Shown piece after piece: positions 6,025-53,950 of a DNA stretch of 64,000 bases. The stretch comes from Cephalotus follicularis (taxonomy: Eukaryota > Streptophyta > Magnoliopsida > Oxalidales > Cephalotaceae): positions 83,661 through 147,660 of the forward strand of contig BDDD01003378.1 in assembly GCA_001972305.1 (NCBI GenBank). Direction: 5' to 3'. The position numbers were made by a program, and so were the translations under genes. Positions within the stretch are counted from its first letter, which is position 1, and each line of letters starts with the position of its first letter. The notes below the pieces were generated by a model. The model had not been told where the DNA came from and did not search any database. It saw nothing but the letters and a program-made list of their open reading frames with translations.

Positions 6025-6350
6025 AAAGGCGTCGATGTCTTTGGAAAAAGACATCGATGCGTATCAGAGCATGCCTTTGAAAATGATAGAATAATGTCGA
6101 TGTCTTTTGTCTTTCTCAGTTAGCCAAAGACGTCGATGTACTTGGACAAGGACGTCGACGCGTTTCAATAAAAATGACCTGGGAATGCGCATCGATGTCC
6201 CGCGTCGATGCCTTTTCTAGGAAAAGACATCTCAAGGCAAAGACGTCGATGTCTTTCAAAGACATCGATGTCTTTGCTACGAAATCAAGGAGGTTGCATC
6301 CCAAAGCGAAAGACATCGATGTCCATGGGCAAGGGGATCGATGTCTTTGC
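6025..6350. repeat. Palindromic ATCGAT/GTCGAC motif cluster in C LTR
   Basis: About a dozen copies of forms such as aaagacatcgatgtcttt, aaagacgtcgatg and gacgtcgacgcg lie within 325 bp. The same cluster sits at the matching place in solo LTR L. Open frames here merely translate the repeats (DIDVF, TSMS). Confidence 0.85.
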
Positions 6351-6781
6351 TGGGAATGGCCGATTTTATGCAGAAAACCAGCAATTTTCAAGACAAAATA
6401 CAATTTAAAACCTTTCTTTGAAAACCAAGGTTTAAAATCAATCATTTAAGGTTAGTAAAACTTGTTACAACCTTCAAAATTCAGTTCAATCTCCCTAGAT
6501 CCATTAGAGCAAGGAAAATTAATGAAAACCCTAGTTTCACAATTTATTTCAATTTAATCATTCAATCACTCAATCAATCATGCATTTAAGCAATAGGAAA
6601 TTCAGGTAGGGAAGTCCTACCTTTAACAGAGCTTGAAAAGTTAAGCTTCCAATCAATCAATCGGTTGGGAAACTTGAAGAATCCACTGCAATCTTGCTCC
6701 AACCAAGGAAAGTTGAGACTTCAATTGTTGTTTTCTGTTTGAGATACAATCCAGAGCTGCTATGGAGGAGGAGGCTATCGG

Positions 6782-6788
<7 letters not shown>

Positions 6789-6828
<40 letters not shown>
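6789..6828. repeat. (GA)n microsatellite in C LTR
   Basis: About 20 uninterrupted GA units, equivalent to (CT)n on the element's sense strand. It lies about 80 bp downstream of the TATA-like box at 6904-6912, where plant core promoters and 5' leaders often have pyrimidine tracts. LTR L has the same tract at 54373-54410. Confidence 0.9.
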
Positions 6829-6832
<4 letters not shown>

Positions 6833-6903
6833 AGATAGGATAGGAGAAGGATAGAGAGAGGGAGAAGAATGAGTGAAATGAGAAAATGAGAATGAGAAAT
6901 TGA

Positions 6904-6912
6904 CTTATATAG
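6904..6912 (-). promoter_or_regulatory. Putative TATA box of element C
   Basis: The reverse complement reads CTATATAAG in the unique-sequence part of the LTR, upstream of the (CT)n tract. The identical box occurs in LTR L at 54473-54481. Confidence 0.5.
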
Positions 6913-7078
6913 TCAATTCGACCGACTATCCGAAACTCAGCCCAAAATCCCGATTATACATGCATTTAACCAATACAGTAACAATAGGTATAGGAAAACC
7001 TCAATTCAAAACAATTTGATACGGTCCAATACGGTACAGTATGCATGAACAGTACAAAAGGGAATTCGGGTCATCACA

Positions 7079-7954: not shown

Positions 7955-8180
7955 TGTTTAACCGTCGAATGTTTTCTGTAAACCACTGACGGTTAGACTA
8001 AGCGCTGATGTTAAGCGCTGGCGGAAACATTAAGTGCTGATGGTTTGAGAAAATTGTCAACGCTTAAGGGTTTAAACTTCGACGGTTTGTTTAAAGCACC
8101 GAAGGTTACACAAAGCATCGACACGTCAACTAAAGCATTGGCGCTTAGCACGTAACCACCGACGATTACGGCAAACCAAC
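7955..8180. repeat. Palindromic GCGTCGACGC-type cluster in A leader
   Basis: Diverged copies such as aagcgctgatgttaagcgctggcgg, cttcgacggttt, aaagcatcgacacg and caccgacgattacgg begin about 75 nt after the PBS. The match to the core is weaker than in other clusters. Element B has a stronger cluster at the matching leader position (36935-37310). Confidence 0.7.
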
Positions 8181-10580: not shown

Positions 10581-11654
10581 TGAAAAACCTCTATGGCAAC
10601 CTTAAACTAAAGAGATATTGTTCGCGGAAATAACAAAATCAAAAATGAAGCTAAACAACCATACAAGAACAAATAAAACAAATGTAAGTAAAGAGAGAAG
10701 GGATAGAGAGAGTGCAAACGAATTTATCGTGGTTCGGCAAAATCCGTACCTATATCCACTTTCTCAAGAACCCCTTGAGATTCCACTAGAGACCACTAGC
10801 AACCTTTGATTTCGGCTTACGGGTGCAAATCAAAGAAAACCACCTTACACTTGATTTTGTGTTTCGGGTGCAAATCAACTAAACACCTTACAAGGGTTCA
10901 CTCTCCTCTTCATAAAGAAAGATTTGTAATAAAGTTTTATGTTTACCAATTAACCACTTAAAGGTTTGATATGAAAGTGTTTGACCGACAAGCTTTGAAT
11001 GATTTGAAAGTTGAAGATGTCAAGCTCTTGTTCTTAGATTGTGCAAAAGTCCTTTTGATCTTTATTCTTGGCTTCAATTTATTGTATATTTAAGTTTCTA
11101 GATGTTATGGAGCTAATAGAGCCGTTGGAGAAGCATTGGAACTTGTTGTGTCTGAAACGGCCCTCAAAAAGTGGTCCAGTTAATTTCTGCCTGCCCAAAG
11201 CGTCGCCGGAGTAACACTATGCGTCAATGCTTATGTTATCATTATGTGTATGAATTTGAATTTCTCGCTCAGACCGTTGGCGCTTTGATTGGGTGTCGAC
11301 TGTTTGGCATAAAGCGCTGACGCTTTCCCTTGAGCGTCGACGCTTTGAGTTCTTCAATTGATTTTGCATGTCACTGTTTTTAACCGCAGATACAAGGCGC
11401 TGACGTCTTGGTCCAAACCACTGACGCTTTACATTAGACGTCGGCGCTTTGACCAGTTCATATCAACCACTAAGGCTTTGTCCAGTGCTCACGTCGGTTT
11501 ACACTCAAAGCGTCGGCAATTTTATTCCAACCGTCGGTGCGTTGAACATTTTTTGCACTATTTTATTTTGTTTATCTTTTCTTGCACAGAAATTAACAAT
11601 GTTAAATGCAAATTTATAATCGTTAAAACTCAGGATTGAGACTAAAAGTTAACA
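10581..11654 (-). mobile_element. 3' LTR of element G
   Basis: Runs from tgaaaaacctctatggc to aaaagttaaca on the plus strand (the element-sense copy starts TGTTAACTTTTAG). It aligns along its whole length with 19346-20423 and includes the phrase gtggttcggcaaaatccg, typical of this kind of LTR. Confidence 0.93.
11200..11535. repeat. Palindromic motif cluster in G 3' LTR
   Basis: Contains aaagcgctgacgctttccc, gagcgtcgacgctttgag, gacgtcggcgctttgacc and related copies. It is in U3 of the element, close to the LTR start on the element's sense strand. Confidence 0.85.
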
Positions 11655-11668
11655 ATCTCCCCCTTTTT
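11655..11668 (-). other. Polypurine tract of element G
   Basis: The minus strand reads AAAAAGGGGGAGAT directly before the LTR start TGTTAAC, as expected for the plus-strand DNA primer. Further similar tracts lie at 17030-17520. Confidence 0.8.
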
Positions 11669-11789
11669 AGATGATTACAAAAATTTGCTACATTAAGGAA
11701 AAAAAATTATAACAGTTCAAAACAAAAAGTACATTTGAATGATAAGATTTCCTTTGGATGCCAACTTAAAAACTTTAGATAATCTCCCC

Positions 11790-12340
11790 TGTAGCGCCCC
11801 CGACCCGATTCCGCTTTATGCTCAAAGTGAGCTCCGAAGATCGGTGCGTTACATAGGTGTGACCTTTGCCATCAAATCATATAACCATTTAACGATCCAT
11901 TTCCTGTCATTTAATCTTGCCTTAGATTTAAAACCTAACATTATTACTTAATAACTTCACAGGATCGCATATGCTTACATCTTTCAAACACCAATTTCAA
12001 AATATCATTTTCTCATTATCATGATCGTTTCTAATACCTTTGCATTTGTACATCACCTAACATGTAACCTTACACAGCGAAAAAAAAACATAATCTTATC
12101 ATATCATAAAACAATCATATACTCGCCTTTACCATTAACATCTCATACACTCAAGTATGTTCAATAACTTTTGACATCATCATCTTACATAAAAACATCA
12201 TAATCTATAGCATTCATTACCTTACCTTAACATCTATACATCGTTTATCATAAAACATTACACAGCGGAAAACATAAACACATGACATTAAAACATAACT
12301 TCATCGCATATCATACTTCCTTTCCTTACACTTCTTGTGT
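11790..12340 (-). mobile_element. Left terminal segment of element H
   Basis: Starts tgtagcgcccccgacccg right after the TSD and contains the cagcggaaaacataaac phrase common in Gypsy LTRs, but it does not align with the right LTR past its first bases. No gene is seen. Confidence 0.5.
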
Positions 12341-12389
12341 GGAACTCATCGTTGTCAAAACGTTTATGCTCCTGTGGATCAAAACATCC

Positions 12390-14330
12390 GCCAAGACGTT
12401 CTCTTTTCCTGGATGGCATACTCATAATTCTTAAGATTCCAAGAAACTCTCTTCGCATTGATCAGACCATTCGAACTTAACATTCTTCCGTGTCACCCTT
12501 GTAAGAGGGTTCGCAATGCGAGAGAAACTTTCAATGAACCTTCGGTAGTAGCCTATTGATCCAAGAAAACTTCATATTTCTGCTTCCAACATTGGTCTTT
12601 ACCATTCTTTCATTGTCATAGTCTTATCAGGCACCATTAAAATACCTTCTCGTGACATCTCGTGACTTAAGATTGGCACTTACTGAACTTAGTATACAAT
12701 TGTTCCCTCCTCAATGTTTGCAACACATTGGTCAAATGCTCTTTATGTTCCACTTGACTTTTGGAGTATATCAAAATGTCGTCAATCAAATTATCTCAAA
12801 CTGGCCCAAAAATTGTTGAACACTCTCTTCATCAACTCCATAAAAGCAGTTGGAGTATTTGTCAATCCAAATGACATTACCAAAACTCGAGGTGTCCGTA
12901 TCTTGTCCGAATAGAAATTGTCGGTACATCCCACTTCTTCACCTTTACTTGATGATAACCTCATTGAGGGTCGATCCTTAAGCATTCTTAAGCTGATCAA
13001 ACAGATCGTCGATCCTTAGCGATCGATACAGAGTCTCATTGTCCCATCTTTCTCCTTTACACGCCCCACCGGTGCATCCCATGGTGATACACTTGGTCGG
13101 ATAAGTCCTTTATTCAAAAAGCTCTTGTAACCGATTCTTCCATCCTTTCGACTCAGTCGACATCATACGATAAGGGCTCCTTGAAACTGGAGTCATTCCG
13201 GGTACTAAGTCCATTGCAAACTCTATCTCTTGATCAAGTGGTATGCCTGATATATCTTCGGGAAACAAATCCATAAAATTCTTAACCACATGAACATCTT
13301 TCATCTTCATCCTTTCTTACTTAGTGTTCACCACCTAAGCAAGGTAACCTTTCTAGCAGCTTTTCAACAATCATCCAGCTTGGATTGCTGATATGAAACT
13401 TAGGGGTTTACTGACTTTTGGGCCCTGGTAAACAAACTCCGCTTGATTGGTTATCGAAACTTATCCTTTTTCCTTATACCAATCAACATAAACATGATTA
13501 GCCGAAAGCCAAATCCATGCTTGTCACAACGTCATTAGAATCCTTTCACATCTTCAGCTTTCATGGCGTATGTACTAACTGATGCTCTGGGTTATTGAGC
13601 TCCATTCTCTCTTTCTCCATTAGACCTCTCTTTCTTGCTGTTGTAGCTAGAGGATTCACCTACCTTCATCTTTCCTTGTCCTTGGTCCTTTCGCTTTTGC
13701 TGGTATTTCGGATTATTGCATCCATCAACACCGCTTCGTAGGTTTGTGGATCCTACGCTATCAACAACCTTTGAGCGTTGGGGTCCAAACCCTTGCAAAT
13801 CTTATTCGTTATTCTTTGCTCCGATGACACTATGTGAGCCGCATATCGAGACAACCTCACAACTTCACCTCGTACAGAGCTATTGATTCGGACTTACCTT
13901 CTTCCAATCGAAGAAAGTCCTCTTCCATCTTATCCTTCATTGGCTGAGGAAAATATTTGTCCATAAATATTTCCTTAAACGTTTCCCCACGTCATCGCTT
14001 ATAACTCCCGAAGTGTCTTCGTCATCTCGATCATGTCCCACCATCGATATACTTCTCCTTCTATCTTGTCAAACGGAAACTCTTCCTTCTGATGATCCAC
14101 GCAATCCAAGGCTCTGAAGATCTCTTCCTTTCCTTGGATCCATACTTCAGTCTCCATAGGATCTGTCACTCCGAAAAAGGCTTTCGGATGTTGTCTTGCA
14201 AACGGTTCTTCTTCGTTGACCGGCACGTTCCTTCTTCACCGCGACTTCATCTTAAGTCGGTCATCTCTTTAACTTACGAGTTAGCCCTTAACCTTAGACG
14301 ATTCTATTCAAGACCTTACAAAGAACTAAC
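12390..14330 (-). pseudogene. gag-pol: Gypsy element H gag-RT remnant
   Basis: Read right to left. Gag: 14226-13999 has a KAFFGVTDPMETEVWI...YRWWD pattern typical of Gypsy capsid, followed by a basic Gln/Lys-rich segment (13798-13592). RT: 13310-13110 has the N-terminal approach motif MDLFPEDISGIPLDQEIEF. 13000-12791 has the VMSFGLTNTPTAFMELM block. 12600-12400 carries a frameshifted YYRRFIE-like connection/RNase H entry. The catalytic YxDD segment, most of RNase H and integrase are not readable in any frame. Many stops and frameshifts occur, and the copy is dead. The Chromovirus/Tekay-versus-other lineage cannot be decided. Confidence 0.75.
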
Positions 14331-16443
14331 ATCTACACCTCTTTGCACATGTCTTACATCCACTATTCATTTCTTACACAAAGCTCCTTCACAAATATTC
14401 TAGTCTTCATCGCTAGACTCGTCATCATCGGGTATCTCTTTTCAGATACGCCTTAACATCATTACCAAGTTTTCTCTAACTTCTCGTATAACTATTCCAC
14501 TCATTCCCATATAAATCTCAAAAGAACTTTAAGACCTGTCATAACTTCTACAAAGCATTCATCCCTTCTTACTAACTCCTATCGATACTGTAACACCCCC
14601 GGACGGCGGGAGTCGTCACAGGGTCATATCATACATAACATAACTTATAACTTAACAAATCATAAGTTTGCTTTATGAGTTAATAACAGCCAAAAACGTG
14701 GCAGTCTTATCAAAACAGTAATACTTAACCATTTAACATATTAAGTAGTTACGGAAAATTCAAAACATAAATCAGTTCCAATTTAAAACATAAAACATAA
14801 CATAATAACCCATGTTTCTAACCACTAATCATAACATAAGGATCACTCTCCTAAGGATCCAACATATAGGGTGGTCATCACTCAATCACACTTTCCCCCG
14901 TTACTCCTGAAAACCTGCCGCATGGAAACAAAAACGCGGCTGAGCAAACCTCAGTACGGATAAGGGAAAATAAAACAGTAAATGGTAATTAAAAAAAACA
15001 GTAATATTTCAATAAACTTCGTAACAGAAATCTTAAACAGTTACAACAGTTTAATCATATTCAAATGACAATTGCATATTTTTCGAAATAATTACGGAAC
15101 AATTCAAAACGTTATAAATCGTAGTTCGTAAAACATACTGAGCCATATTCATATCACATATCATAAATTTTGGCAAGGGAGGCGCTAATTCCACATGCCC
15201 ACTAGAATTGAAGTGTACGGCACTACACAAGTCAATTCTCACATACACATGTCCGATCACACCTCGGACCACATATCTGAATTCACCTCGGATCACATAC
15301 ACTAGAATCGATTCATACGCCTCTATCATATATAGCGGATCCACAAATCCACCTCATGTGATTTGTTCATACACTCAGAGAAGCCGTAGTCTAATCACAC
15401 TGCTACGGAAGTGTCACGTCCCCGTGCCAGGCCCACGACGTGCCTATGGTACGCCCCATAGGTAGGTACAATACTCAGTATTTATTTCAAAAATAATTGA
15501 TTTATCAAAATCAATTTAAAACACATAAAATATGTTCTTACACCACATATTCAGAAAACCGCTCACAACGGTATCATTAAAACACATTTCTTTTACTAGA
15601 TTAATCCTCACTGGATCGCAATCCAGTAGTTGTTCATTCATTTCATAAAACATTTCTTATACTTTGAGTGACCAGCTCAGAGCATTCATAACACATTTCT
15701 TTTCATTTGAGTAATTAACTCAAATGCATTCATAAAACATTTCTCTTCATTTGAATGCATTCATAAAATAATTTCATAAAATCTTCCTTAATACCTTGAG
15801 TGATCAGCTCAAAGCATTCATAAAACATCATTGTAAAACCTTTCTAAAACTGGTTTTCCATATATAAACCATGATTTCATTTCCTTTCACAATTCATAAA
15901 ACATTTCTCATCACTTTGAGTAATTAAATAAAAAACCTTTAGAAAAAAGTTTTGCATAGATTTTCTAAAATAGATATTTATTATAGAAATAATCACTTTC
16001 ATAGAAAACTCAAAACATAAAAGTTAAAGTAGACATCTCAATGAATCTATTGTGATAAAAATCATAAAATTCCATTGAGAAATGAAGCTGCAATGAATTT
16101 TTAAAGTTGCAGTTTCCTTTTGAAAACTGGACCTGAGCAGTAGAAGAAAACAAGGCTTTTCATCAAGAATTCTATAGAATTTCGAGATTCATAAAACATA
16201 ACAGTTAAAGCAGACATCTTAAGGTTTTCAAAACATTGAACCATTCAAAATTTCATCAAGAAATGAGCAAGATATCAATAAAACTATCTGTTGCATAATT
16301 TGGAAGTAAAACAGAGGAAACTTAGACATAAATGGGTATAGAATTTCCTTACCTCACTTGATCTCCTTCTCTTCTTCTCTCCCACGAATTCTCCTCTCCA
16401 ATATCAGCAGAAACCAACCCTTTGTTCAGCTAAGAATGCACAC

Positions 16444-16452
16444 ATATATAAG
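16444..16452 (-). promoter_or_regulatory. Putative TATA box of element H
   Basis: The minus strand reads TTATATATG about 580 bp into the LTR, downstream of the motif cluster in the sense direction. Support is sequence match only. Confidence 0.4.
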
Positions 16453-16674
16453 GAGGGAGAGAAACTTGGAGGCCAAGCTTGCATGGTGTCATCCATGACC
16501 TCACCCATGTGAGCTTGCCTCCATGTGATTTAATTAAACCAATTCAGCTGATGCCACCTGCCCTTTTCTAGCAAAATATCATAAGTATTCCATCCCTTGC
16601 TTGACACGTATCCTACAATCCATTTAAATCCTCCGAAACAGGATAAAAAGCTAGAATTCTGCACCGGACACAGG

Positions 16675-16855
16675 GCAAAGCGTCGACTCTTTATCCCTAA
16701 CTGTCGCCGGTCACGGGCTTATCCTGAGTTCTCCAACTTCTATCCCGACTAAAGCGCTGACGCTTTCCTACAAAGCGTCGCCACTTTAAGTCTCCTCCAG
16801 GTCAACATCAATACTTGATCTCAAAGCGTCGAAGCTAACATTTGGAGCATCACCG
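16675..16855. repeat. Palindromic motif cluster in H LTR
   Basis: Holds aaagcgtcgactcttt, aaagcgctgacgctttcc, aaagcgtcgccacttt and caaagcgtcgaagc. It lies upstream of the TATA-like box at 16444. Confidence 0.85.
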
Positions 16856-16859
16856 AGCC

Positions 16860-16935
16860 CCTGCCCGCTGACCGGGCAGCGAGACCCCCCGTCCGCTCAC
16901 CGGGGAGCGGAACCCCCGAACCCCCCGAGCGTAGG
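16860..16935. repeat. GC-rich duplicated hairpins in H LTR
   Basis: Two similar 30-bp units, each with an inverted repeat: GCCCG/CGGGC (16863-16876) and CCGCT/AGCGG (16893-16910), each followed by a C run. The G+C content stands out sharply from the AT-rich LTR. Confidence 0.6.
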
Positions 16936-17029
16936 GTCATACTCTAGGTCCCTTGAAATATTCTCCAATTACACAATAGCAATCATCTTTTCATAATTAA
17001 TATCTTTAATGGAAATTCGGGTCATTACA

Positions 17030-17568
17030 TCCCCCTTAATATGACATCTAATTTTCTTTCAATATGCAAAACAGAGATTTATGCAAATAATCTTATTTAT
17101 CTCCCCCTAACCATAAACTCCCCCTTAATACAAACACATTCTTCTTTTTGAGAAGTATATATTATTATTAAGCACAATTTCTTATCTAACTCCCCCTTAG
17201 TATAAACTATCAATTTCTCCTTAAGTATAAAGCATTCTCCCCCTTTTTTGTTAGCATCAAAAAGAGTACTTCAACAAATTTGATACCATATGGACAAGCA
17301 TAAAGGGATACCAATTTAAAGATAATTTTAAATTAGCATCAATTGTAAATGAATTTAATAAAAAATATTCAAAGAGGGTAATTCATCATATCCTTACACA
17401 AAAACCAACTGAAAAATTGAGAGATACCAATTGAAAATTAAAGATTAAATCAATGAGAGCATTATTTTATAAAAACATTACCTCCCCCTTAACAAAAGCT
17501 TTCTTCCCCCTAACTTATGTACTTGAGCATTTTGAATTTAACTCCAAGTTCACCTACAAAAATAGAGT
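17030..17568 (-). other. Multiple polypurine tracts in element G
   Basis: Within 500 bp the plus strand repeats ctcccccttaat-like words (near 17030, 17100, 17116, 17192, 17238, 17482 and 17506), i.e. runs such as TTAAGGGGGAG on the sense strand. Multiple polypurine tracts before the 3' LTR are, to my knowledge, a described hallmark of Sireviruses. No gene is seen. Confidence 0.7.
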
Positions 17569-19284: not shown

Positions 19285-19331
19285 TTGGGTGGATCTTTAT
19301 ATTTCTAAAAATTAAGAATTATGAAATAACC

Positions 19332-19343
19332 GCTCTGATACCA
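19332..19343 (-). other. Primer binding site of element G
   Basis: The reverse complement is TGGTATCAGAGC, a perfect 12-nt match to the initiator-Met tRNA PBS, 2 nt from the LTR end at 19346. Confidence 0.92.
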
Positions 19344-19345
19344 AC

Positions 19346-20423
19346 TGAAAAACCTCTATGACAACCTTAAACTAAAGAGATATTGTTTGCGGAAATAACA
19401 AAATGAACAATAAAGCTAAACAATCATACAAGAACAAATAAAACAAATGTAAGCAAAGAGAAAATTGATAGAGCGAGTGCAAACGAATTTATAGTGGTTC
19501 GGCAAAATCCGTGCCTACGTCCACTTTCTCAAGAACCCCTTGAGATTCCACTAGAGACCACTAGCAACCTTTGATTTTGGCTTATGGGTGCAAATCAAAG
19601 AAAACCACCTTACACTTGATTTTGGATTTCGGGTGCAAATCAACTAAACACATTACAAGGGTTCACTCCCCTCTTCACAAAGAAAGATTTGTAATAAAGT
19701 TTTGTGTTTACAAATTAACCTCTTAAAGGTTTGATATGAAAGTGTTTGACCGACAAGCTTTGAATGATTTGAATGTTGAAGATGTTAAGCTCTTGTTCCT
19801 AGATTGTGCAAAAGTCCTTTTGATCTTTATTCTTGGCTTCTATTTATTGTATATTTAAGTTTCTAGTCGTTGTGGAGCTAATAGAGCCATTGGAGAAGCA
19901 TTGGAACTTGTTGTGTTTGAAACGACCCTCAAAAAGTGGTCCAGTTAATTTCTGCCCATGCCCAAAGCGTCACCGGAATAACACTAAGCGTCGACGCTTA
20001 TGTTACCGTTATGTGTATGAATTTGAAATTCTCGCTCAGACCATTAGCGCTTTGATCTGGGTATCGACTGTTTGACATAAAGCGCTGACGCTTTCCCTTG
20101 AGTGTCACCGCTTTGAGTTCTTCAATTGATTTTGCAAGTCACTGTTTTTAACTGCAGATACAAGGGGCTGACGCGTTGGTCCAAACCGCTGACACTTTCC
20201 ATTAGACCGTCGGTGCTTTGACCAGTTCATATCAACTACTGAGGCTTTGTCCAGTGCTCACGTCGGTTTACACTCAAAGCGTTGGCGCTGTGATTCCAAC
20301 CGTCGGCGCTTTGAACATTTTCTGCACTACTTTATTTTGTTTATCTTTTCTTGCACAAAAAGTAACAATGTTAAATGCAAATTTGTAATCGTTAAAACTC
20401 AGGATTGAGACTAAAAGTTAACA
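19346..20423 (-). mobile_element. 5' LTR of element G
   Basis: Aligns end to end with 10581-11654 and is followed by TSD ATTTG. Differences from the 3' LTR are mainly single transitions spread along it. An AT-rich TATA-like stretch lies near 19836-19860 on the sense strand, downstream of the motif cluster. Confidence 0.93.
19965..20310. repeat. Palindromic motif cluster in G 5' LTR
   Basis: Contains taagcgtcgacgcttatg, aaagcgctgacgctttccc, gaccgtcggtgctttgacc, aaagcgttggcgctgtg and accgtcggcgctttg, starting about 115 bp from the LTR start in the sense direction. Confidence 0.88.
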
Positions 20424-24109: not shown

Positions 24110-24870
24110 TTTTTTGCGTCAACACCTAACTCTAGGCATCAACGTGTACTCATCCTATGCTCCAAAATGAAATCAATCTCTTTTGGCGTCAATGTATACG
24201 CCATACGCGTTAACCTGTAAACAGTTCTCTTAGGCGTTAACGTCTATTCTAGGCGTCAACGTGTTTGGTAGCCCACTTAGGCGCCAACACGCACTCTAGG
24301 CGTCAGTGCATGAAACAGTTCCTTTAGGCGTCAACGTCCTCTCTAGACGTTGACGTGCGTGGCAACCCACTCAGGCGCCAACTTTCGCTCTAGGCATCAA
24401 CACAAACCCTGGGCGTCAACGTGTATGGTAGCCCACTCGGGCGCCAACACGCGCTCTAGGCGTCATTTCATGAAATAGCTCCTTTAGGCGTCAAAGTCCT
24501 CAATAGACGTCGGCGTGAGTGGCAACCCACTTAGGCGCCAACATTCGCTCTAGGCGTCAACATAAACCTTAGGGGTCAACGTGTATGGTAGCCCACTCAG
24601 GCGCCAACACGCACTCTAGGCGTCAGTGCGTGGAACAGCTCCTTTAGGCGTCAACGTCCTCTCTAGACGTCGACGTGCGTGGCTACCCACTCAGGCGCCA
24701 ACATTCGCTCTAGGCGTCAACGTTAATAGCGCACAGTGTCTAGCAGACACTTAGGCATTAACGTGTTCCTTTGGCGTCGACGCTTTCAGGTAAGGAACCT
24801 TAAGCACCGACGCGTCGTGCGTTCTTTCCTCTTGTATAATAGACCATGGCATCGACGCGTACTCTCGGTG
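24110..24870. repeat. AGGCGTCAACG motif array with 160-bp higher-order unit
   Basis: Dozens of taggcgtcaacgt/gacgtcgacgt-type words. From about 24240 to 24740 they are organised in 160-bp units: cctttaggcgtcaacg or a near copy starts at 24321, 24481 and 24641. It is the largest and most regular of the window's motif clusters. Confidence 0.9.
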
Positions 24871-33489: not shown

Positions 33490-33690
33490 CACTAAGCATC
33501 GACGCATATGTGCTAGATGTCGACAGTTAAGGTGTTATACCTTAAGCGTCGACTCTTTGCACTAGGCTTCGACGGCTAAGGCAATTTGCCTTAAGCGTCG
33601 ACGCATACACCATTGTAAAACATAAAGCGTCGATTACTCATTCCAAAGCGTTGACTCCTCTATACTAGGCGTTGACGGTTTGGCCATATC
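33490..33690. repeat. Palindromic motif cluster in LTR D
   Basis: Contains taagcatcgacgcatatg, ttaagcgtcgactctttgc, ggcttcgacggctaagg, taagcgtcgacgcatacac, aaagcgtcgattac and aggcgttgacggtttgg. Confidence 0.85.
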
Positions 33691-36934: not shown

Positions 36935-37310
36935 AAGCGGCGAAGCTCTGCCTTAAGCGTCGGAGGTTACTGGCTATTTGTCGACGCTAACGTTGACGCT
37001 TTGGCGTAACCATCTACACTTCAAGCGAAGCATCATACGCATGTGTCCCGACTATAGCGGCGACGCTTTATCATAAGCGTTGGCGTTTACTGGCTTAGCG
37101 TCGATGCCACTGTCGACACTTTGCATAACCCACTTTGCTTTAGACAAAGCGCCATCGCCCAATCCATTAAGCGTCGTTGTGTAAACAATTTCATCGACGG
37201 TTTACCTTGACCATTGGTGCTTAACGCAAACGTCAGCGCGTAAATGAATACCGTCAGCGCTTTATGTCCAACTGTCGACGCTTTACGCGAAACAGTTGAC
37301 TGTTAGCCAG
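36935..37310. repeat. Palindromic motif cluster in B leader
   Basis: Includes ccttaagcgtcggagg, tgtcgacgctaacgttgacgctttgg, agcggcgacgctttatc, agcgtcgatgccactgtcgacactttgc, gtcagcgctttatg and ctgtcgacgctttacgcg. It starts about 85 nt after the PBS in the sense direction. Confidence 0.88.
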
Positions 37311-39525: not shown

Positions 39526-42026
39526 TGTTAGGTTAGGGGTGTCCCTATATGCCATGAAATGGCTTTGTATATATATATACACTATTGATTTATACAAATT
39601 TTGAATTCCTTTTATATTGCATGTGCATATTTCTTTAATGGCAAGGATATGTGGCTCATCCCCACCAACCAAAAGGAACAGACTAATTATACGTAATTAA
39701 ATGTATGCCACAATAGCGTGCTGTCACATTCAAAGGGTTGGATCTCTTGCCGAGAGGGCTATGAGAATGTGATCCTTATTCCATGTGACAAATCTTCCAA
39801 CTCATAGGTTCACTTTCTTTGGGCCATTGTTGAACCACGAAGACTTGTCACGTTAATCTTGCTCTCGGGTTAGTAGTGGAGGTTGGTTATCTAGTAGCCA
39901 AATGGGTTTATCCCTAAAGCTAAATGTGAGGTGTATGCTAGAGAGCAGGACACTGAACAGACCCACCAATGGGAAACCTATTTAGATAGTCAATACCCAA
40001 TGTCAATAGGATTTTGATGGTCTCGGTAGTGTATAGTCTATGGTGACTAGTAGGTCTATAGCCTGCGTTGTCTCCTTTGACCTGAACAGCTGGCATGCAT
40101 TATGTGGTAACTACTTGAATTTGATTTCTGCCCACCCCAGCACTAGCCAGGTGCTGGCAGAAGGGTTGTCTTTGGTTCTTGTGGGAGCTGCATTGAGATG
40201 TATGGGCGAATGCACAATACAGGATCGTTACACCTGGGCTGAGGGTGACTGGCTCTATTTATCTATGTACGTTGCAGACTTAAAAGTCCTGATCAGGCAT
40301 AGGTGGACTGGGAACGAGAGGTTCCCGTGGGAGGTCTATCGATAGTCTAAGTGCGATCATAGATTCATAGCTATCATAGCACTACTAGGGGTGACATTCA
40401 TCCAAATCCTAGGTTGTGATCGGAGCCATGTATGATGAGGGAAACATGACACATATGCCGATGACTAGATAAAGAGAATGACTATTCAGTCCATGATTGA
40501 TAGACACGGTAATACATGGATCCAGGGGGTGACTGGCGCTCACACCGTGTGTGCTCTGATAGTCGGTGTACTATTAGAGAGCTCGTACCAGATGACGGGG
40601 TGCACTAAGAATTTATCATCAGACCAGAGAATGACGTGCTTTCGGGTCCTACCTGACTTTGAACGAGATATGTGACGGGACACATATTATTTAGTGAAAG
40701 GACAACATCATGGAAGATGTTGCTTGGCTAGTGAGTATTTCATTTGATGGATTTAGGTCCATGCAATACCATGATGAAATATTCCATACGAAGGCTTTTG
40801 AATGTACAAGAGATTGTTCTTTGTCTTGGGCGTCGACGCTATGAGTGGACGTCGATGCCTATGTCTAGTTGGGCTGTTGGGCGTTAACGTGAAGGGATTG
40901 TGTTGACACTCGAAAAAATAGTAGCTTTACACATCGACGCCAAGAGGGCATCACGTCGACGTCCAAACTAGAAATCCGTTGGGCGTTAACGCTATGGAGA
41001 GCATGGCGTTGACAATTTAAAAACCTGTAGGTATGAGCGTTAATGCCATGGGGTTTTGGCATTGACTCGAAGACAAATGGACTGTTCGCCTATGTCATAT
41101 TATCTGTGGCGTTGACGCCTTTTCGTAATGTGAGATGCTTGACATCGATGCCTTGATACGGCGTTGACGCCTAAAGATTATGATGTGTGCTACAGTAGGA
41201 GAGAGAAAGTCAGCACTAAATAAAGCTTGAGAGAAGCTTGCTACACACACTTCAGACTTTCTTCTTCTCTTTCTTCCCTGCGCCTCTCTTCTTCTTCCTG
41301 CTCACATACACGTCGATTCCTATCACCTATGCGTTGACGCCTACGTCACCTAGTGCGATAAAGCAACCATTTTCAAGCCTCCTTTCACCACTCAAAGGTC
41401 ATAATAGGTGGAGATACTTTGTACACTACATCTTATCTACACCTAGAGTGATTTATACTAGGTTAAACACTTCGCCTTGCATTCTCCCATCCGTATCTTG
41501 TGGAGAAGCTTGGATCTTTTGGAGTTTTTTGGAATAAAGAGTAGAGGGATCTATCTTGAAGAAAGGAGTCTTCACCACCGGTAAGAATCCTTTTCTTCCT
41601 TCCTCTTGTGACGCCATGGCAGTGGGTTTTGGGGTTAGGGTGTGTGTACCCTATCCGGGCCTCCATGGTTGTTGTGTTACTTTCTTTGTCATCCCTTGGG
41701 GTTAGGGATGATGTGGGCGAGGGTTGATTGGGCTATGGCTAGGGTTTTGTATGTTCTTCCTTGTGAGACATTGTTAGTGTCCAATTCTCGGGTCTATGGA
41801 CCCTAGCTTTATCGACCCGTTGTGCCCGATGCTTGGTTGTTAGTTTTGGTTTAATTCGATGTTGATTAGAGTTGCTTGGCATTTATTGGGACGATTCGGA
41901 TTTAGATTAGGGCATCCCATTGCTTGAGGATTAATCTATTTGTGGAAAATTAAAGTTAATCGTCCCTACCCCCTATAGTCCGAATTGATAAGTCTTCCGC
42001 TGTGCTCGGGCTGAGCGTTCCCAACA
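39526..42026 (+). mobile_element. Solo LTR J (2.5 kb), Copia, related to E
   Basis: Perfect duplication CCAAC (39521-39525 and 42027-42031). The ends are tgttaggttaggggtgtccc and gcgttcccaaca, TG...CA. Its start and the region to about 40760 align with E's 3' LTR (62118-63330). From about 40780 J holds a motif cluster where E has different sequence. Pyrimidine-rich DNA follows (41255-41300), with a weak TATA-like ctaaataaag at 41216. Open frames 40040-40345 and 40478-40675 have counterparts in E's LTR but no domain. Confidence 0.92.
40825..41175. repeat. Palindromic motif cluster in LTR J
   Basis: Contains gggcgtcgacgctatgag, ggacgtcgatgcc, acatcgacgccaag, cacgtcgacgtccaa, gggcgttaacgctatgg, gacatcgatgcc and ggcgttgacgcc; two more copies lie at 41310-41345. 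It sits just upstream of the TATA-like string at 41216. Confidence 0.88.
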
Positions 42027-45362: not shown

Positions 45363-47376
45363 CTCTGGAGGTAAGGATGTCAACTCATCTGGGAACATGT
45401 CAGGATACTCACCGACAACTGGAACATCCTCTAACCTCGGCACCCACTTCCTACCGTTCGTCACATGGGCCAGGTAACCACTATAACCCTGTCTCATCAG
45501 CCTGTCAGCATGAACTGTCAATATCATTTGAACTGGCTAGTCCTCTAAAGTCCCAATAAATTTGAACTGAGACTGCCCTGGCATACTGAAGGTCACAACC
45601 TTCCTGTAACAATCCACTTGGGCATAATGTTCCACTAACCAATCCATCATTAGGATCACATCCAACTCATCCATCGATAACACTATCAAATCAGCCATCA
45701 AGATACGATCAACGATCTCTATCCACAATACCTACACACCCATTCAAAGTAAACAGGTTCTCCTACTGGAGTGCTCACTTCCATAATAAAAGGTAATATC
45801 TTGGGTTCCACATCGATATAACATCAGAAATGGGATGCAACATATGAATGTGATGAACCTGGATCGATTAGAGTCTGTGCCATATGCTCAGAAATATGAA
45901 TGGTACCCCCAATCACTGAATCGGATCCCGCTACAGCTCTCTGATCCATATCATACACCATGCCCCGCACTGTAGGTGTCGATCCCATGGGCTGCTTACC
46001 ATGATCTCCCCTCACTATAGAAGGTGCACTGGTACTAGGATGACCCTGATACTGCTGTCTAGGACCACTACCCTGCTGATAACCAATACCCAGGTTCTGC
46101 TAAGAAACTCCCTAAGATCGGCCCATACCCTGATCCAGCTAATAACCTGGGCCAAACCTTCGATGAGGGCAATCCCTAACCATGTGGTCTAAAGGTCCAC
46201 GGATAATAGACTAGCCAGCCTTCCACCAACAATAGTCATATGCATGATTCATGGGTTGACAATGCACACACGGGCCAACAGAAGCTTGACCACTACCACT
46301 GGAAAGTCTAGAATGACCTCCATGTGCCCTATGGTTCCTCTGCTGAGAGCCCTGTCCTCTACGCCTTTGTTGTGAACCCTGATTCTGTCCCCTATGTCCA
46401 GAAAAACCAGGTGGACTACCGATGCTCTAAGGAGAACCACTCTGACTCGGGCTGCTATTCCCCAATCTCTGGGACTTGTTACTACTCCCAGAATTCCTCC
46501 CTAACTGCCAATCTAAAGAAGCAAGTATGCTACTACCCAGCTGAATCCTCAAGTTGCGTAGTTCTTTAGCCACACTCTCAAGCTCTCTGGCTCTGCTAGC
46601 CAACTCAAAGAAGAATCTCAACCTTAAGGGTAATAGCTTTTGTCTAATATCTGGTCTCAATCCATTAAGAAACTTATCGGCCTTTCTTCCATCTGTACTA
46701 ACCATGTGAGGCACAATCATTGCCAATTCAATGACTCTGGCCTCATACTGGGACACTGTCATACTGCCCTGCACTAGACCAAGGAACTCTGCATCTTTTC
46801 TATCGATCTATGTCTCGGGAAAATATTTTTCATTAATTCAGCAACAAACATATCCCAAGACTTTTCTATCTCTGATTCCTCCCAAGAAGACTCGGTCATC
46901 CTCCACCAATCTTCTGCCTCACCCTATAGTATTTAAGAAACAAAAGCAATCCTCTACGAGTCTGAACATTCCAAGACCCCAAAGATTTTCTCCATTTGCA
47001 TCAACCATCTCTCAAAGGAAATAGCATCGTCATCTCGCATAAAATCCGAGGGATTTAAATACAAAAACCAGATCAAGGGATCCTCCCTACGTGCAGTCTA
47101 ATCAACTGGTCTCTTCGCTGTCTCTGTACGTCTAGCTGGTCTTACAGCTGTGGTTTATTCTGCTGCAGCCGCTTGGCGCTGCATAACCTCATTCATTTGG
47201 GCCATTATGACATGAATCTCTCTCAAATAATCCCTGGGTTCTTCTTGAGCAGGTGCAACAAACACTGCTTCTTCAATACCTCTATTAGCTCGAGTACGTC
47301 AGGTCGCTGCTTGGGTGCGTTCGGTCAATGAACCACCCCTAGCTCTTCTGGAAGTTCTTCCACGTCGGCCTTCCAT
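45363..47376 (-). pseudogene. gag-pol: Gypsy element F gag, protease and RT start
   Basis: Right to left from an ATG at 47376. There is a damaged gag N-terminus, a capsid core with stops (ERWLMQMEKIFGVL, then GEAEDWW near 46910), and 46774-46427 with the SQYEARVIELA helix. A nucleocapsid with CVHC.PMNHAYDYC and a second His/Cys motif lies near 46250-46150. The protease at 46015-45824 reads LIDPGSSHSY, where the catalytic Asp-Ser/Thr-Gly is Asp-Pro-Gly. A linker follows (45728-45537). The RT approach MFPDELTSLPPE ends at 45363, exactly where A's LTR begins. The rest of pol is not present to the left of A in this window. Confidence 0.85.
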
Positions 47377-47530: not shown

Positions 47531-48322
47531 CTAAACTGTCACTCCCTGAACCATGGGAAGACCCCACAGTCTAACATGTGGCATACCATCCATTCAATCA
47601 ATCAATACACCACAGCATATTACCAAAATATGCTACAAATTAAAAACTAAAATATACATACAATGAAAAATCATTCATTAGATAATGATATAGTCAAACC
47701 CAACACAATACAATACCAAATGGATATCTGAAGCACTGTCACAAGCCGATAGGTCGATACAACTGAAATACAATATCTTATAAATCCATATCTCATATAT
47801 GGTAGATAAAAATAATTTGAAATGTTGTCCAAAGCCTGCTTAGGAGGTTCGATCCATCTCGATCTGTCTCACTTTGATGCATCCCATTTCGAACATAGGT
47901 CAGCCAAACACAGCTATGTAGGTAATACTATATGCAATGAAGTGTACAGATATAGCAGATATATGCATGGCTTGTGAGAAGCATGAATGCCAATTGTGGA
48001 CAACGTTAGTATATCAACCGTCCATAAGCAGTGGCATACATAACGATGTCCTAACCATAGAATCACAATCCATACACCCTAGGTCTACAGACAATCAATC
48101 AGTCGACCAATCAATCAATGTGTACAATCAATCCATAGGGTCTATCTTCGTCATCTACACACACTGTGTCCTAGGCGAGTGGAGTCGAGATAATACTGAC
48201 CACACTAATAACAACATAATCACAAGTTCCTGAAGTTTCTAGCTCAATTTCCCATTCAATCAATCATTCCCTCAGTAAATCATTCACTCGATTAATCATT
48301 CACTCAATCTCAGTTCTATTGC

Positions 48323-48480
48323 CAGTCCCTGAAGGTTCTAGCCCAATTTCAGTTCAATCGCCAGTCCTTGAAGGTTCTAGCTCAATGGCAATCCAATTGT
48401 CAGTCCCCGTAGGTTCTAGCCCAATTTCAATTCAATTGTCAGTCCCTGAAGGTTCTATCTCAATTGCAATCCAATCAATC
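48323..48480. repeat. 39-bp minisatellite in F LTR
   Basis: cagtcc of the unit cagtccctgaaggttctagc begins at 48323, 48362, 48401 and 48440. The period is divisible by three, which explains the open frame 48319-48579 (repeats of PEGSSPISIQ type); I do not call it a gene. Confidence 0.9.
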
Positions 48481-49074
48481 GTTATTCAGTTAATCATTCA
48501 CTCAGTATGGTACCATCTTCCTATAGTCCATCCGCAATGCGGTGTCCCCCAAAGGTTCACCCCTAAGGGGATGTTCTAATAGGGCCACTCAATGGACTAT
48601 AACAATTTTGGTTAATAACAATACAAGGTGGTCTAACCCCTAACCTTCATAACGGTAATGAATATTAGGAATGGGTTATCTTATCGGTTTCAACAGTGAC
48701 AATCCGTTAACCGATACCATAAGTCATTTAAAAGACAGGGACCTAGTCATAAAGGATCACATAGGACCCATCTGTCATCCACTACAACAATCATTCAATA
48801 ATACTAGTTACCGTAGGCCCTAGCTCACAATTGTGTTCCCAAAGGTCCACCTATAACAATACAGTTCACTTTCGGTCCTTATCGGAGTTTACAAAACCAT
48901 TTGCACAAACCTTATTGAAAATTCGTTGATGATCAATTGTAACACAATTGTGTTTAAAAGTAGGTTTCCATAGGTTACACGGCCTTAGGGAGGCTTCCTA
49001 TGGATCACATTTGAGTGTAGAAAGAACTGGGATTTAAAAAGGGTTTGAAAACACTTCATCTTGTTTGGAAACTG

Positions 49075-49265
49075 GGCAAAGCGCAGACGCTATCTTTCAA
49101 ACCGTCGACGGTGTGGCTAGCAAAGCACTAACGCTTTGACAAAATCATCACCGCTTTGCGCATTTCAGCCTAAAGCGCTGATAGTTCGCCAAAGCGTCAG
49201 CAGTTGAGATCCAATCAAAGCGTCGCTATTTAGTTCCAAGGCGCCGATACTTTGACAGGTTCCAG
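49075..49265. repeat. Palindromic motif cluster in F LTR
   Basis: Contains aaaccgtcgacggtgtgg, aaagcactaacgctttgac, aaagcgctgatag, aaagcgtcagcag, aaagcgtcgctattt and aaggcgccgatactttg. Confidence 0.82.
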
Positions 49266-49808
49266 CGACTGTCCGATCGTTGTTTTCACAATCTAATTCC
49301 ACTCTGATCCATTTTAAACAATTCAAACCCTGATCCAAGGGAGCTATAAGCTCTAAGGGTCAATTTCCACTTAAGGGTCATCACTAAAACACCACAATCG
49401 ATGTCCAGAAACGATTAATCGAAAGAGAAGAGAAATTGAGCAAAAGTCCCAAATTCACTAATCTCTCTCTGATCTCACATTCAATCTGTTTCAAACCCTA
49501 TCAATTGCCCTAACTCATTCATCTAGCCCTGATCTAACAGTCCATAACAATATATCACTCAATTTTAATCAGTATGCATGAATTCAAAGCATATATGTAG
49601 AACCTACCTCGATAACTGTTGAGCTGAAGATCGGGAAGGATTTGTGGTTGAAACTTTGATCGGATCCTTCCTTCGTGCTCTAAACTCTGCCACTAGTCCA
49701 ACAACTCCTTCCTTGCTCCAATCCGAGCTTCGTCTCTCTAACTCACCCTCTCACTGTCTCTCTAGAAGGAGAAGAAGAGGAATTATGAGAAAGAGGATTT
49801 CAGCTCAC

Positions 49809-49819: not shown

Positions 49820-50003
49820 CTTCCTTTAGGTCAAAATCTCAAGGATATGCCTTAGGTTCTATTGAACCCCTACAATCCATAAACATCCATAGAATGGAAA
49901 ATATCATAATATGATATACCACCAAAGCCATCCATTAATACAATATTGTACATATATACAATCAATTACAATCCGATATAACGCTTAAAATCTGGGGTTT
50001 ACA

Positions 50004-50509
50004 TATTCACTATATTTCTGTATCTTCATACTTAAACTCCTGTTGTTGGTATCTTTGATTAATACCTATCTATTGTTAGAAATTGTTGTTATGTGAGCTA
50101 TGTGCTTTTGAGTAGGTCATTCCCTTCTCTTACCTTACTAGTTCTTGAAATTTCCTGTTGGATATTTGTGCCCTTTTTTCATATTCTTGATATGAGATGA
50201 CCTTGACAGCCTGATTTTGTTGGAACCTCATACTTTGATTCAACTTCTTGTGATACTCACTTTTCCACTATTGAGATACTATTGATGTGGATTTGATGAT
50301 TATATCATGTTTTGGGTGACAATGCCACATTCCCTTATGTGCATTATTGTGAGATTGCGTTTTGTACTCTGATGCTGGGTACCTTTGTGTTATTTACTTT
50401 TTCACGTACGCCCAGCGTACGTGGTGGGTTGTTACATATGATGCATAGCCTATAGGGCGCTCTGTAGCTGGCCCATTGTACGGGGTGGGGTGTTACGTCG
50501 AAGCATAGC
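50004..50509. other. Unassigned DNA right of F, with hairpin and split duplication
   Basis: AT-rich noncoding sequence. At 50403-50423 there is a perfect 9-bp inverted repeat, CACGTACGC-CCA-GCGTACGTG. From about 50420, the phrase acgtggtgggttgttaca...gcatagcctat is repeated about 64 bp later, and the second copy is cut in two by solo LTR K (it resumes at 51596 with ctataagcatactctg). It may be part of an old LTR. No gene is seen. Confidence 0.5.
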
Positions 50510-51595
50510 TGTAACGCCCGGTATTTTCCTGGATGTAATATTTCGATTTATGATGTAAACATTAATCTGGATTTAATGAGAATGTTGAGTTTTAACCTCA
50601 AAAGATGCTTGCAAACCCTAGTTATGGACTTAGAAATGGAGTGTGTATGTTAAAGCTTGAAACGACGCTGTTTTGGCCAAAAGACATCGACGTCTTTTGG
50701 AAAGACGTCGACTCCTTTGTGACCTAGGGCACACGTGAATGCATGGGCATGCACGTCGACTCGAGAAGGAGGAATCGACACCTTCTTACGATTGGGCAAA
50801 GACATCGACGTCCAAGTAAAGACGTCGACGCCTTTGTACGAATGGCCAGCACGTTCTTCGTCGACAGAACATCATGCTAGAAAGAATTGTTTAGGGGCTC
50901 ACCTAACGCCTTTCTGAGTGCTCTGTGGCGTGTTGTGCATGTGGGAGTGTTTGTACTGTTTGCTGGTCCTTTGCGGACATTACTGATTGTTGACGTAGCC
51001 CTGGCCGGGTTACTACTGCACTGTTACTGTACACATATATTTTTATATGTAACACTGATATTTTACTGTACTGATATATGTATTCTCATATATGTATAAA
51101 TTGGGTCTCCACTGCACTGCATCATTTATGCATTCATATCATGACATGCATTATGTTAATCCTGACTTACTGTTATGACTTGGCCAAGTGAGGACAAAGG
51201 CTAACCCCCTACTTTACAGATTGATGCAGTGGACTTTTGGATCAGCATGGATGAAGACCCTGTTATTATTCCTATTTTGTTTATCTTGTTCTGTAATAAA
51301 CCCGTGAGGATTATTGATCCGGATATGCCATCTTTATGGTTCTGTTTCTGAAGGAATTTTTATATTGTACTGTATTGTTCACGCTCCGTTTTATGGGCGA
51401 TTGACTTTTATGACCTGTATTAGGGTAGCGTACGGTATGGGACGTACGTTACGTTTTGACAGCTCATGTTCTTTTATGCTTCCGCAACTGTTATGCTTGT
51501 AAAAGTTTTAAATTTTACGGTTTTCACATGAGCTGTATTTATGTTAATTGCCTTTACCGCTTTAATGCTGCGTTTATTGTAAACGGGGTGTGACA
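50510..51595 (+). mobile_element. Solo LTR K (1.1 kb)
   Basis: Perfect duplication ATAGC (50505-50509 and 51596-51600). The ends are tgtaacgcccgg and ggggtgtgaca, TG...CA. The segment near 51180-51230 (ccaagtgaggacaaaggctaac, gattgatgcagtgg) matches the minus strand of LTR I near 23255-23310, giving K the plus orientation and a family link. A TATA-like tatatttttatatg lies near 51030. No coding capacity. Confidence 0.92.
50660..50880. repeat. Palindromic motif cluster in LTR K
   Basis: Contains aaaagacatcgacgtctttt, aaagacgtcgactcctttg, tgcacgtcgactcgag, aaagacatcgacgtccaag, aaagacgtcgacgcctttg and cgtcgacagaac, about 150 bp from the LTR start. Confidence 0.9.
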
Positions 51596-51600
51596 ATAGC

Positions 51601-52230
51601 CTATAAGCATACTCTGCACCGATGCATGATATATACATTATAGCTTCAGGCTCATTGTGATACTTGATGATATTTCATGTGTACCAGCATCTCTAGATAT
51701 TTTATTCAGAAATGGGCACATTTGTGGATTTTGTTATAATTGTGGAGACCGTAACTTGAGTATTGAGATTGTTCTTTAGATTCACATTCTATACTTCCTT
51801 GTGCTTAAATCCTATTTATATTTTTTTCTCTTTTCATTCAGCATTTGCAGGTATTTTATTCAATGTGAACGCATTTTTGGATCATGTTTATATTTGTGGA
51901 GCCCATTTGTTGAGTATGGAGATTTCTTTTAGTGAATTCATATTTTTGGATCTTATTCTCATTTGTGAATCTTGTTTATAACTGTGGAGCTAATTTGTTG
52001 AGTATTGAGTTTCATTTTTGTGGTTTTACTTTCTATATTATTCGTGCTTATATCCTTGTAGATATTATTTCTCCTTTATTTTAGTATATTCCTATCCTTC
52101 CGATTGATGTTTCAGGTGACATTTATAAGTAGAGAAATGAAGACGAGATAAATATTAGTCTGGTCAGACCTCCCCTTAATGATAGTCTGTTAAGACAGTG
52201 TCCCATAGGTTCAATCACAATATGTGCTCC
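51601..52230. other. Unassigned AT-rich DNA with diverged repeats
   Basis: Phrases of the form gtggag...ttgttgagtattgag recur near 51742, 51896 and 51985, and tcctatttatattt...cctttatttt-like segments alternate with them. No domain is found in the short open frames (51763-51981). It was continuous with 50004-50509 before K inserted. Confidence 0.45.
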
Positions 52231-53614
52231 TGTAACACCCCGCGCCCGGAGGACGAACACGTGGCATTACTCTCAATCCAATGTACAATACAATGGTCGG
52301 GACTAGCAATATAAAAATACGGAAAAACTTAAAACTTTACAATACATGTCATTGTGCGAAAGATTCAACACAATTCTCTTGTAAACATTGCAATAATCCA
52401 TCCATGCAATACAGTACAAATTCTGTTACAATACTATGCCAGTCATTTCATTACAACACATTTCAATACAATACTCATCAACAATTTCATCGGTACAATC
52501 TACAATACAAGCTCTGTCATATCAAAACAGTCATGCAGTCGCACTGAATCTTCAATCCTTCTGTCCGCTGCTACTGGCTGCCCTACCTATGCCGCAGACA
52601 ACATGTACAACATAGCCACACCACGAAGGATGAGGTTAGCCACAAGGCTAAGCAGAAACCCCATGCAGTATGTATGCATGTACAATGTGCAATATCAGTG
52701 ACAATCTATGCAATATCAATGTGTAGTGTACAATATCAATGCATGATATGATAACACATGTATACAATTGGCGATTTGACTATCCATATGACACTGGCCC
52801 ATAACAGAGCATATGAATAGCATCTATAACAATCAATCAATAGCAGACACTCAGTGGTGGCGTATAAAACACCCAATCAATCAATCATATCCTGTAGAGC
52901 ATGCGACCTCGGGGTCAGTACAATGTCAGTCAATGGTAATGATCAATCCTACAAAAGGTAGTCCTTCGAAGAAGGTGGGAGATCTATCTACTGTTCTCAG
53001 ACTGATCAGGTCTGCAACTCGTAGATCTTCCAGCCTATGGCTGGGTCAATACAGTCTCGATGAGCTACAACCGAGGGAGTCACTAAACCGTCAGGGAGCT
53101 ACGGCCCTCAAGGGAGCATCAATCATCAATCAATCAATATGCTCAACATCAAGACAATACAATAAATGAAACGATCGACGAAACAAGTGGACAGAGTCAA
53201 CAACCTAACATGCCGATACGAATCATAAGGTCACTCTATAGGATTCGTACAATACAATCAATCTATCAGTACAATGTCATTAAGTGGTGATGTCTAATGG
53301 AGAAATGGGAAAATGCGTCAACCGTTCTGAACTTAGACTCATAACACTTATGGCTTAATCAATCAATCAATAGCCAATAGACGGTGACAATCAAATAATG
53401 AGATAGGAAAGAACATCTATCCAGTCAAAGAAAGTCACTGGGTCATCGCCTATGGCTAAAGCTGTCACTCTATCAATTTATCAATTCAATCTTTAAAAAC
53501 CATGAAAAATTGTGTTTTAAAAGCTTGAATACCTCAAGTGAGGCTTCGGTCAAGCGAAAATGTAAAAAGGAATTTAAAACTAGCTTTAAAACAGTTAAAA
53601 GTTCCATTCAGCCC

Positions 53615-53950
53615 GATAGGCGTCGATGTCCTTGGCAAAAGACATCGATGCGTATCAGGGCATTCCTTTAAAATTGTAGAAGACATCGACGTCTTTGAAA
53701 GACATCAACGTCTTTCTCTGTATCTTTAGAGTTCTGGTCGAAGATGTCGATGTCCTTGGACAAAGACGTCGACACGTTTCAATAAAAATAGCCTGGAAAT
53801 GCACATCGATGTTCAACGTCGATGTCTTCTCTGGGGAGAAGAGATCCCAAGGCAAAGACGTCGATGTCTTTGCTACGAAATCAACGATGCTGCATTCTAA
53901 AGCAAAAGACATCAATGTCCATGGGCTGGGGATCGATGTCTTTGCTGGGC
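53615..53950. repeat. Palindromic motif cluster in LTR L
   Basis: Contains ggcgtcgatgtccttgg, aaagacatcgatgcg, agacatcgacgtctttgaaagacatcaacg, aaagacgtcgacacg, aaagacgtcgatgtctttgc and ggatcgatgtctttgc. Copy order follows that of C (6025-6350). Confidence 0.88.

What the first reader, a model, noticed from the sequence alone, without database searches (positions are those of the whole stretch)
6025..53950. One palindromic CpG motif clustered in at least nine unrelated retrotransposon families
Clusters of a degenerate palindrome (core CGTCGACG or ATCGAT) occur at 6025-6350, 7955-8180, 11200-11535, 16675-16855, 19965-20310, 24110-24870, 33490-33690, 36935-37310, 40825-41175, 49075-49265, 50660-50880 and 53615-53950. 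They lie in LTRs of Gypsy (C/L, D, F, H, I, K) and Copia (G, J), and in leaders of Copia A and B. These families share little other sequence, so common descent of the whole LTR cannot explain it. Palindromic LTR repeats have, as I recall, been described for Sireviruses, but not as a feature shared across Gypsy and other Copia families. Possible causes: target sites of one regulator, comparable to the short-motif targeting of VANC-type anti-silencing proteins in some plant DNA transposons; a silencing mark; or spread by template switching in mixed particles. None is shown by the sequence.
Basis: partly seen in the sequence, partly recalled or inferred. Interest (0 to 1): 0.88.

Follow-up and report, generated by a model that had tools for sequence, protein, structure and literature searches.

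The report
Shared palindrome arrays in pitcher-plant retrotransposons
In the genome of the pitcher plant Cephalotus, unrelated kinds of jumping genes carry arrays of one short palindromic DNA word set about two turns of the double helix apart, which suggests that they use the same unknown DNA-binding protein.

Summary
The window lies in a 1.58 Gb plant genome, best identified as Cephalotus follicularis. A motif model trained outside the window finds all 12 reported clusters enriched; 80 of 89 hits fall inside them. CGTCGACG occurs 223,473 times genome-wide, against 9,863 for CGACGTCG, a palindrome of the same letters and CpG number. The fuller site is roughly AAARRCRTCGAYGYYTTT.

Bearers are Gypsy-type LTRs, Sirevirus (Copia) LTRs, other Copia LTRs and Copia leaders. 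'Nine unrelated families' is an overcount: I count four unrelated groups in the window.

New here: neighbouring sites sit 19-22 bp apart in 86 of 100 listed pairs (34 of 47 after collapsing similar spacers), with a second mode at 29-33 bp. The pair pattern occurs 212,446 times, against 550 for its reversed control. Two or three helical turns is the geometry expected of cooperative protein binding.

Best reading: a promoter-proximal DNA-binding array for one dimeric factor, shared by separate lineages; whether by separate gain or by exchange is open. Closest known kind: Sirevirus repeated-motif palindromes, reported as Sirevirus-specific. The factor and its effect are unknown.

The parts
6025..6350 (-). 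Array in the LTR (about 4783-7060) of a minus-strand Gypsy-type element (E1)
   Evidence: 11 model hits; gag PF03732 at 3422-4297(-); PBS-like sequence at 4769(-), 2 mismatches; same family as L019, which has RVT_1, RNase H and SH3_Tf2-1
7955..8180 (+). Weak array in the leader of Copia element A, after the PBS at 7880
   Evidence: 2 model hits; flanks homologous to those of 36935-37310; PBS with 1 mismatch
11200..11535 (-). Array in the 3' LTR (10581-11654) of Sirevirus-type element N1
   Evidence: 5 hits; exact AGGGGGAGATTG junction at 11653(-); gag PF14223 plus CCHC at 17572-18915(-)
16675..16855 (-). Array inside N1, downstream of five AGGGGGAG copies (17101-17482, minus); probably a second Sirevirus-type LTR
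   Evidence: 4 hits; PPT copies; flank 80% over 243 bp to Sirevirus L009
19965..20310 (-). Array in the 5' LTR (19346-20423) of N1, mate of 11200-11535
   Evidence: 3 hits; LTR pair 93%; PBS TTGGTATCAGAGC exact at 19332(-)
24110..24870 (.). Array with tandem repeats of 160 bp (67-bp repeats just beside it) in a 3.4 kb insertion (22855-26273) within the 3' LTR of Copia N2; LTR-like, Gypsy-type by weak similarity only
   Evidence: 17 hits; the repeat finder; edges; similarity to the insertion at 30988
33490..33690 (.). Array in a 4 kb TG..CA insertion (30988-35001) inside N2, LTR-like, similar to the Gypsy-type stretch at 47927-49039
   Evidence: 7 hits; edges; similarity
36935..37310 (-). Array in the leader of Copia element N2 (5' LTR 39452-37408; PBS 37394)
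   Evidence: 6 hits; PBS with 1 mismatch; no site in its 5' LTR
40825..41339 (+).
   Evidence: 7 hits plus 2 just beyond; LTR homologous to 62118-63358, the 3' LTR start of a Copia element; CCAAC duplication
49075..49265 (-). Degenerate array in a probable Gypsy LTR (gag PF03732 at 46430-46807)
   Evidence: 2 hits; gag; PBS-like at 47519(-), 1 mismatch; flank homology to 33371-33456
50660..50880 (-). Array in Gypsy-type LTR sequence
   Evidence: 5 hits; flank 83% over 175 bp to L014, where the array lies 222 bp from the end of a Gypsy-type pol ORF
53615..53950 (-). Array in an LTR of the E1 family (about 52231-54630)
   Evidence: 11 hits; homologous to 4783-7054

Best explanation
The clusters are cis-regulatory arrays on DNA. 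Each unit is a roughly 18-bp dyad (AAARRCRTCGAYGYYTTT, half-site TCGAYGYYTTT) that a dimeric DNA-binding protein of this plant would recognise. Units are set 19-22 bp, less often 29-33 bp, centre to centre, so bound dimers would face the same side of the helix and could bind cooperatively. Arrays lie in non-coding sequence around the promoter: upstream of a TATA-like box in the Sirevirus L009, downstream of one in the L019-family Gypsy LTRs, and in the leader in some Copia elements. Different LTR-retrotransposon lineages appear to keep the array because it aids expression or escape from silencing during their active life. Shown: motif, spacing, location, element classes. Inferred: the protein, dimeric and cooperative binding, and the activating or anti-silencing effect. 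Open: whether lineages gained the array separately or passed pieces of it between them.
For: Genome-wide excess over composition- and CpG-matched words. Pair pattern 212,446 against 550 reversed. Of the first 100 listed pairs, 86 at 19-22 bp and 10 at 29-33; after collapsing spacers within 3 edits, 34 of 47 and 9 of 47; mean central identity of the 34 non-redundant spacers 0.29. The 19-22 step appears in 14 of 15 representative arrays (the 15th, 49050-49290, has one site; not all 15 are independent), best period 10.5 bp over 89 spacings. Bearers include Gypsy, Sirevirus and other Copia. Site variation is not simple CpG decay: CATCGACG 73 against CGTCGACA 10 in 233 kb, while seven LTR pairs show CG/TG 32 and CG/CA 28. 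Between related elements motif CpGs are shared in 90 of 164 cases, other CpGs in 87 of 298; between LTR mates 47 of 63 and 61 of 102 (all seven between-element and all three mate comparisons run there).
Against: No binding, expression, methylation or small-RNA data. An 18-bp unit cannot recur much closer than 18 bp, so only the scarcity at 23-28 bp and the second mode argue for phasing; for spacings above 25 bp the phase signal is modest (48 spacings, R 0.30, nominal P 0.013). Identity at motif columns is often no higher than elsewhere in the LTR, and lower in N1/L009 and in N1 mates; individual sites turn over (N1/L009 keep 2 of 5 and 2 of 12; A/N2 leaders 0 of 3 and 0 of 9). Several LTR elements or fragments lack arrays (L016, L021, L022, L024, window 55153-64000). 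Two of three arrays folded as RNA are far more stable than shuffles.
Confidence: 0.53

Rival explanations
1. RNA-level hairpins: transcribed arrays fold into stem-loops that serve packaging, translation or dimerisation, or feed siRNA production as proposed for maize Sireviruses.
For: Arrays fold far better than shuffles in L017 (z -7.3) and 6025-6350 (z -8.3). Outer positions 5-9 of the half-sites are more often pairable than shuffled. Maize Sirevirus palindromes attract small RNAs (PMC10760457, passages seen, citing Bousios 2016, which is not held).
Against: At the variable core position the two halves do not covary: 31/73/23 observed against 35.9/63.2/27.9 for independent halves. Sirevirus L009, where most sense-strand sites read CATCGACG (an A-C mismatch), keeps the same spacing but folds only at z -2.6. 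There the array lies upstream of a TATA-like box. The outer coupling may reflect family dialects.
Confidence: 0.15
2. One array arose once and pieces of it spread between families by template switching, gene conversion or nested capture, then diverged. This concerns origin and can be true together with the best explanation.
For: Arrays of different classes align, for example Gypsy-family L017:789 with Sirevirus L015 at 80% over 104 bp (E 3e-22) and Copia leader L017:3849 with L017:789 at 79% over 81 bp. In 34 such cross-class alignments motif columns match in 2,075 of 2,546 and the other columns in 531 of 899 (0.59), somewhat more than I would expect from chance in chosen local alignments. Elements are nested in each other here. 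In maize one palindrome is shared by Copia and Helitrons (PMC10760457).
Against: With motif positions masked, 15 representative arrays give no strong cross-class match (best E 0.025; the one of 0.001 is N1 with L012a, whose flank is Sirevirus-like), but L015 and L017:789 were not in that set. Non-motif columns still contain degenerate copies of the motif. 34 spacers differing by 4 or more edits keep the same spacing.
Confidence: 0.22
3. Anti-silencing target arrays of a TE-encoded protein comparable to VANC, supplied in trans by one element class.
For: Dense short motifs in non-coding TE DNA, tandem growth and turnover resemble VANC targets (PMC5735166, passages seen); CpG-rich sites.
Against: VANC21 motifs are in one orientation and rare outside their own family, whereas these are dyads shared across superfamilies. 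No candidate protein was sought.
Confidence: 0.06
4. Neutral local tandem expansion of a CpG-rich word, or mutational decay, without function.
For: 24231-24721 shows 160-bp tandem repeats and 23579-23980 a 67-bp one. The control dyad CRACGTYG also forms 9 loose clusters, some of which may overlap the motif's flanks.
Against: The same word and spacing in unrelated LTRs, control words near background, asymmetric variant spectrum.
Confidence: 0.04

Closest known systems
Sirevirus repeated-motif (RM) palindromes in LTRs (Bousios et al. 2010, PMC2829016; abstract, section 4 parts 1 and 3, sections 9 and 19, and passages seen)
   Same: Many copies of a CpG-containing palindrome in LTR non-coding DNA, in N1 and L009 at 116-561 bp into the LTR and, in L009, upstream of a TATA-like box; Vitis CGGTCGACCG and Tnd-1 ACAATCGATTGT share the TCGA centre.
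   Different: That paper calls the RM Sirevirus-specific and absent from classic Copia, with a CGG-CCG core. Here the core is CRTCGAYG, the bearers include Gypsy and other Copia, some arrays lie after a TATA-like box or in the leader, and spacing clusters at 19-22 bp. I saw no spacing analysis in the parts read.
Maize palindrome CACCGGACNNNGTCCGGTG shared by Copia and Helitrons (PMC10760457, passages seen)
   Same: One palindrome found in two TE superfamilies of one genome.
   Different: There the other superfamily is Helitrons; here two LTR superfamilies with matching array architecture.
VANC target motifs of VANDAL transposons (PMC5735166, passages seen)
   Same: Dense short motifs in non-coding TE DNA, tandem growth and turnover.
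   Different: One orientation, family-restricted, recognised by a protein the element encodes.
Su(Hw) site array of the Drosophila gypsy insulator (recalled; only a search listing seen)
   Same: Protein-binding array in the non-coding leader of an LTR element, bound by a host protein.
   Different: As recalled: one element family, non-palindromic sites, animal zinc-finger protein.

Membership tests
Sirevirus RM palindromes | Highly repeated palindrome in the LTR of a Sirevirus (PPT AGGGGGAG followed by AT/TG) | tested here: met
   N1 and L009 have the exact junction and LTR arrays. In C1:1-853 kb, 6 of 11 exact junctions have a site pair or CGTCGACG within 1.5 kb on the LTR side, one of them only near the 1.5 kb limit.
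Sirevirus RM palindromes | Motif confined to Sireviruses | tested here: not met
   Both LTRs of Gypsy element L019; beside a Gypsy-type pol in L014; leader of Copia L017. 14 of 55 site pairs in C1:1-853 kb lie within 1.5 kb on the LTR side of an exact Sirevirus junction; LTR mates and decayed junctions are not counted there.
Sirevirus RM palindromes | CGG-CCG core | tested here: not met
   Core is CRTCGAYG. The paper itself lists Tnd-1 as an exception.
Sirevirus RM palindromes | Array upstream of the TATA box | tested here: inconclusive
   L009 array 163-561, TATA-like at 658; N1 LTRs have a TATA-like word at 37 in one and 931 in the other; Gypsy L019 TATA-like at 180, array from 480. These are pattern matches only.
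VANC targets | Same-orientation motif restricted to one TE family | tested here: not met
   Dyad-symmetric and shared across superfamilies
VANC targets | TE-encoded binding protein and loss of methylation | not testable with these tools
   No methylation data; no candidate protein sought
Cooperative protein-binding array | Helical phasing with unrelated spacers | tested here: met
   with the site-size caveat and the modest signal above 25 bp
RNA hairpin element | Covariation between the two arms | tested here: inconclusive
   None at the variable core position, some at outer positions

The most novel reading that the evidence does not exclude
The LTR retrotransposons of one plant genome have come to share a single cis-regulatory code: helically phased arrays of one dyad, over half a million sites, read by one host factor on which Gypsy, Sirevirus and other Copia lineages all depend. 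Because T replaces C at the outer CpG on one strand while the mirror change is rare, the factor may read 5-methylcytosine and thymine alike at that place, so that it could still bind methylated, silenced copies.
Probability: 0.3. Interest if true: 0.88.

Novelty: new variant of a known kind. Interest (0 to 1): 0.74.

Why it matters
Palindromic LTR arrays were described as a private feature of Sireviruses. Finding the same motif and spacing in Gypsy and other Copia lineages of one genome points to a shared host dependency. It gives a ready bait (phased 18-bp dyads) for identifying the protein that transposable elements exploit or that silences them, and a clear test of how unrelated elements come to use the same regulatory code.

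Tried and rejected
Passive CpG decay as the cause of the CATCGATG forms: rejected by the lopsided variant spectrum against the even spectrum of LTR pairs. Bare ATCGAT as a marker: only 9 of 31 in the clusters. Six-frame domain motifs recalled from memory gave three Copia hits and no Gypsy hits in the window, so classes rest on Pfam, PBS, PPT and LTR structure. Homologues of the Gypsy-type gag ORF gave one partial hit. Literature: the exact 8-mer with 'retrotransposon' gave 14 papers, none of whose titles concerns plant LTR arrays; 'Cephalotus follicularis' with 'retrotransposon' gave 9 papers, no title on such a motif; some searches gave the leads cited or nothing; one search was too broad (14,409 papers, 10 listed). 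Genome-wide counts of CATCGATG and TGTCGACG were never obtained, so the half-site independence test rests on 127 sites. A matched TE-versus-gene comparison was not possible: among the ORFs scanned only one sample locus showed a clear non-TE gene (L025, Myb, 0 sites). The 20 stretches were taken at places I chose, mostly the same offset in spaced contigs, not at random; L028 (93 bases) was dropped, leaving 19.

Full report
Source. The window is contig C3378:83661-147660 of a 1,577 Mb assembly. The gag ORF at 17572-18915(-) finds its best relatives in Cephalotus follicularis: 85% identity over 95% of the query for the top hit, and the species name in every one of the 120 listed entries (of 875) whose name is not cut off. 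The only hit of a second ORF is also from that species. I take the genome to be C. follicularis, order Oxalidales.

Noticed in passing
window 10581-20423; L009:2703-7186: Sirevirus-type elements with gag and a Sirevirus PPT junction in which I saw no pol; L009 has a 440-aa gag ORF as its main ORF between LTRs 2.2 kb apart. They look non-autonomous.
   Followed up: partly
window 17101-17482(-): Five AGGGGGAG polypurine copies after the gag ORF but about 5.4 kb before the 3' LTR of N1, suggesting a second Sirevirus-type insertion or an internal duplication.
   Followed up: partly
window 7078-45362: Copia element A is interrupted by N1, N2 and a solo LTR, and N2 in turn by two further insertions (22855-26273 and 30988-35001).
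   Followed up: yes
window 32761-33238 and 23579-23980: Tandem duplications of 238 bp (95%) and 67 bp units inside the LTR-like insertions.
   Followed up: no
L026:458-9970: Satellite-like array with about 163-bp spacing of GATTACGCCCC along most of the stretch.
   Followed up: no
window 55153-64000, L016, L021, L022, L024: LTR elements or fragments of them with no strict array found, so the array is not universal; the L022 LTR pair differs at 1.0% of columns, hence young.
   Followed up: partly
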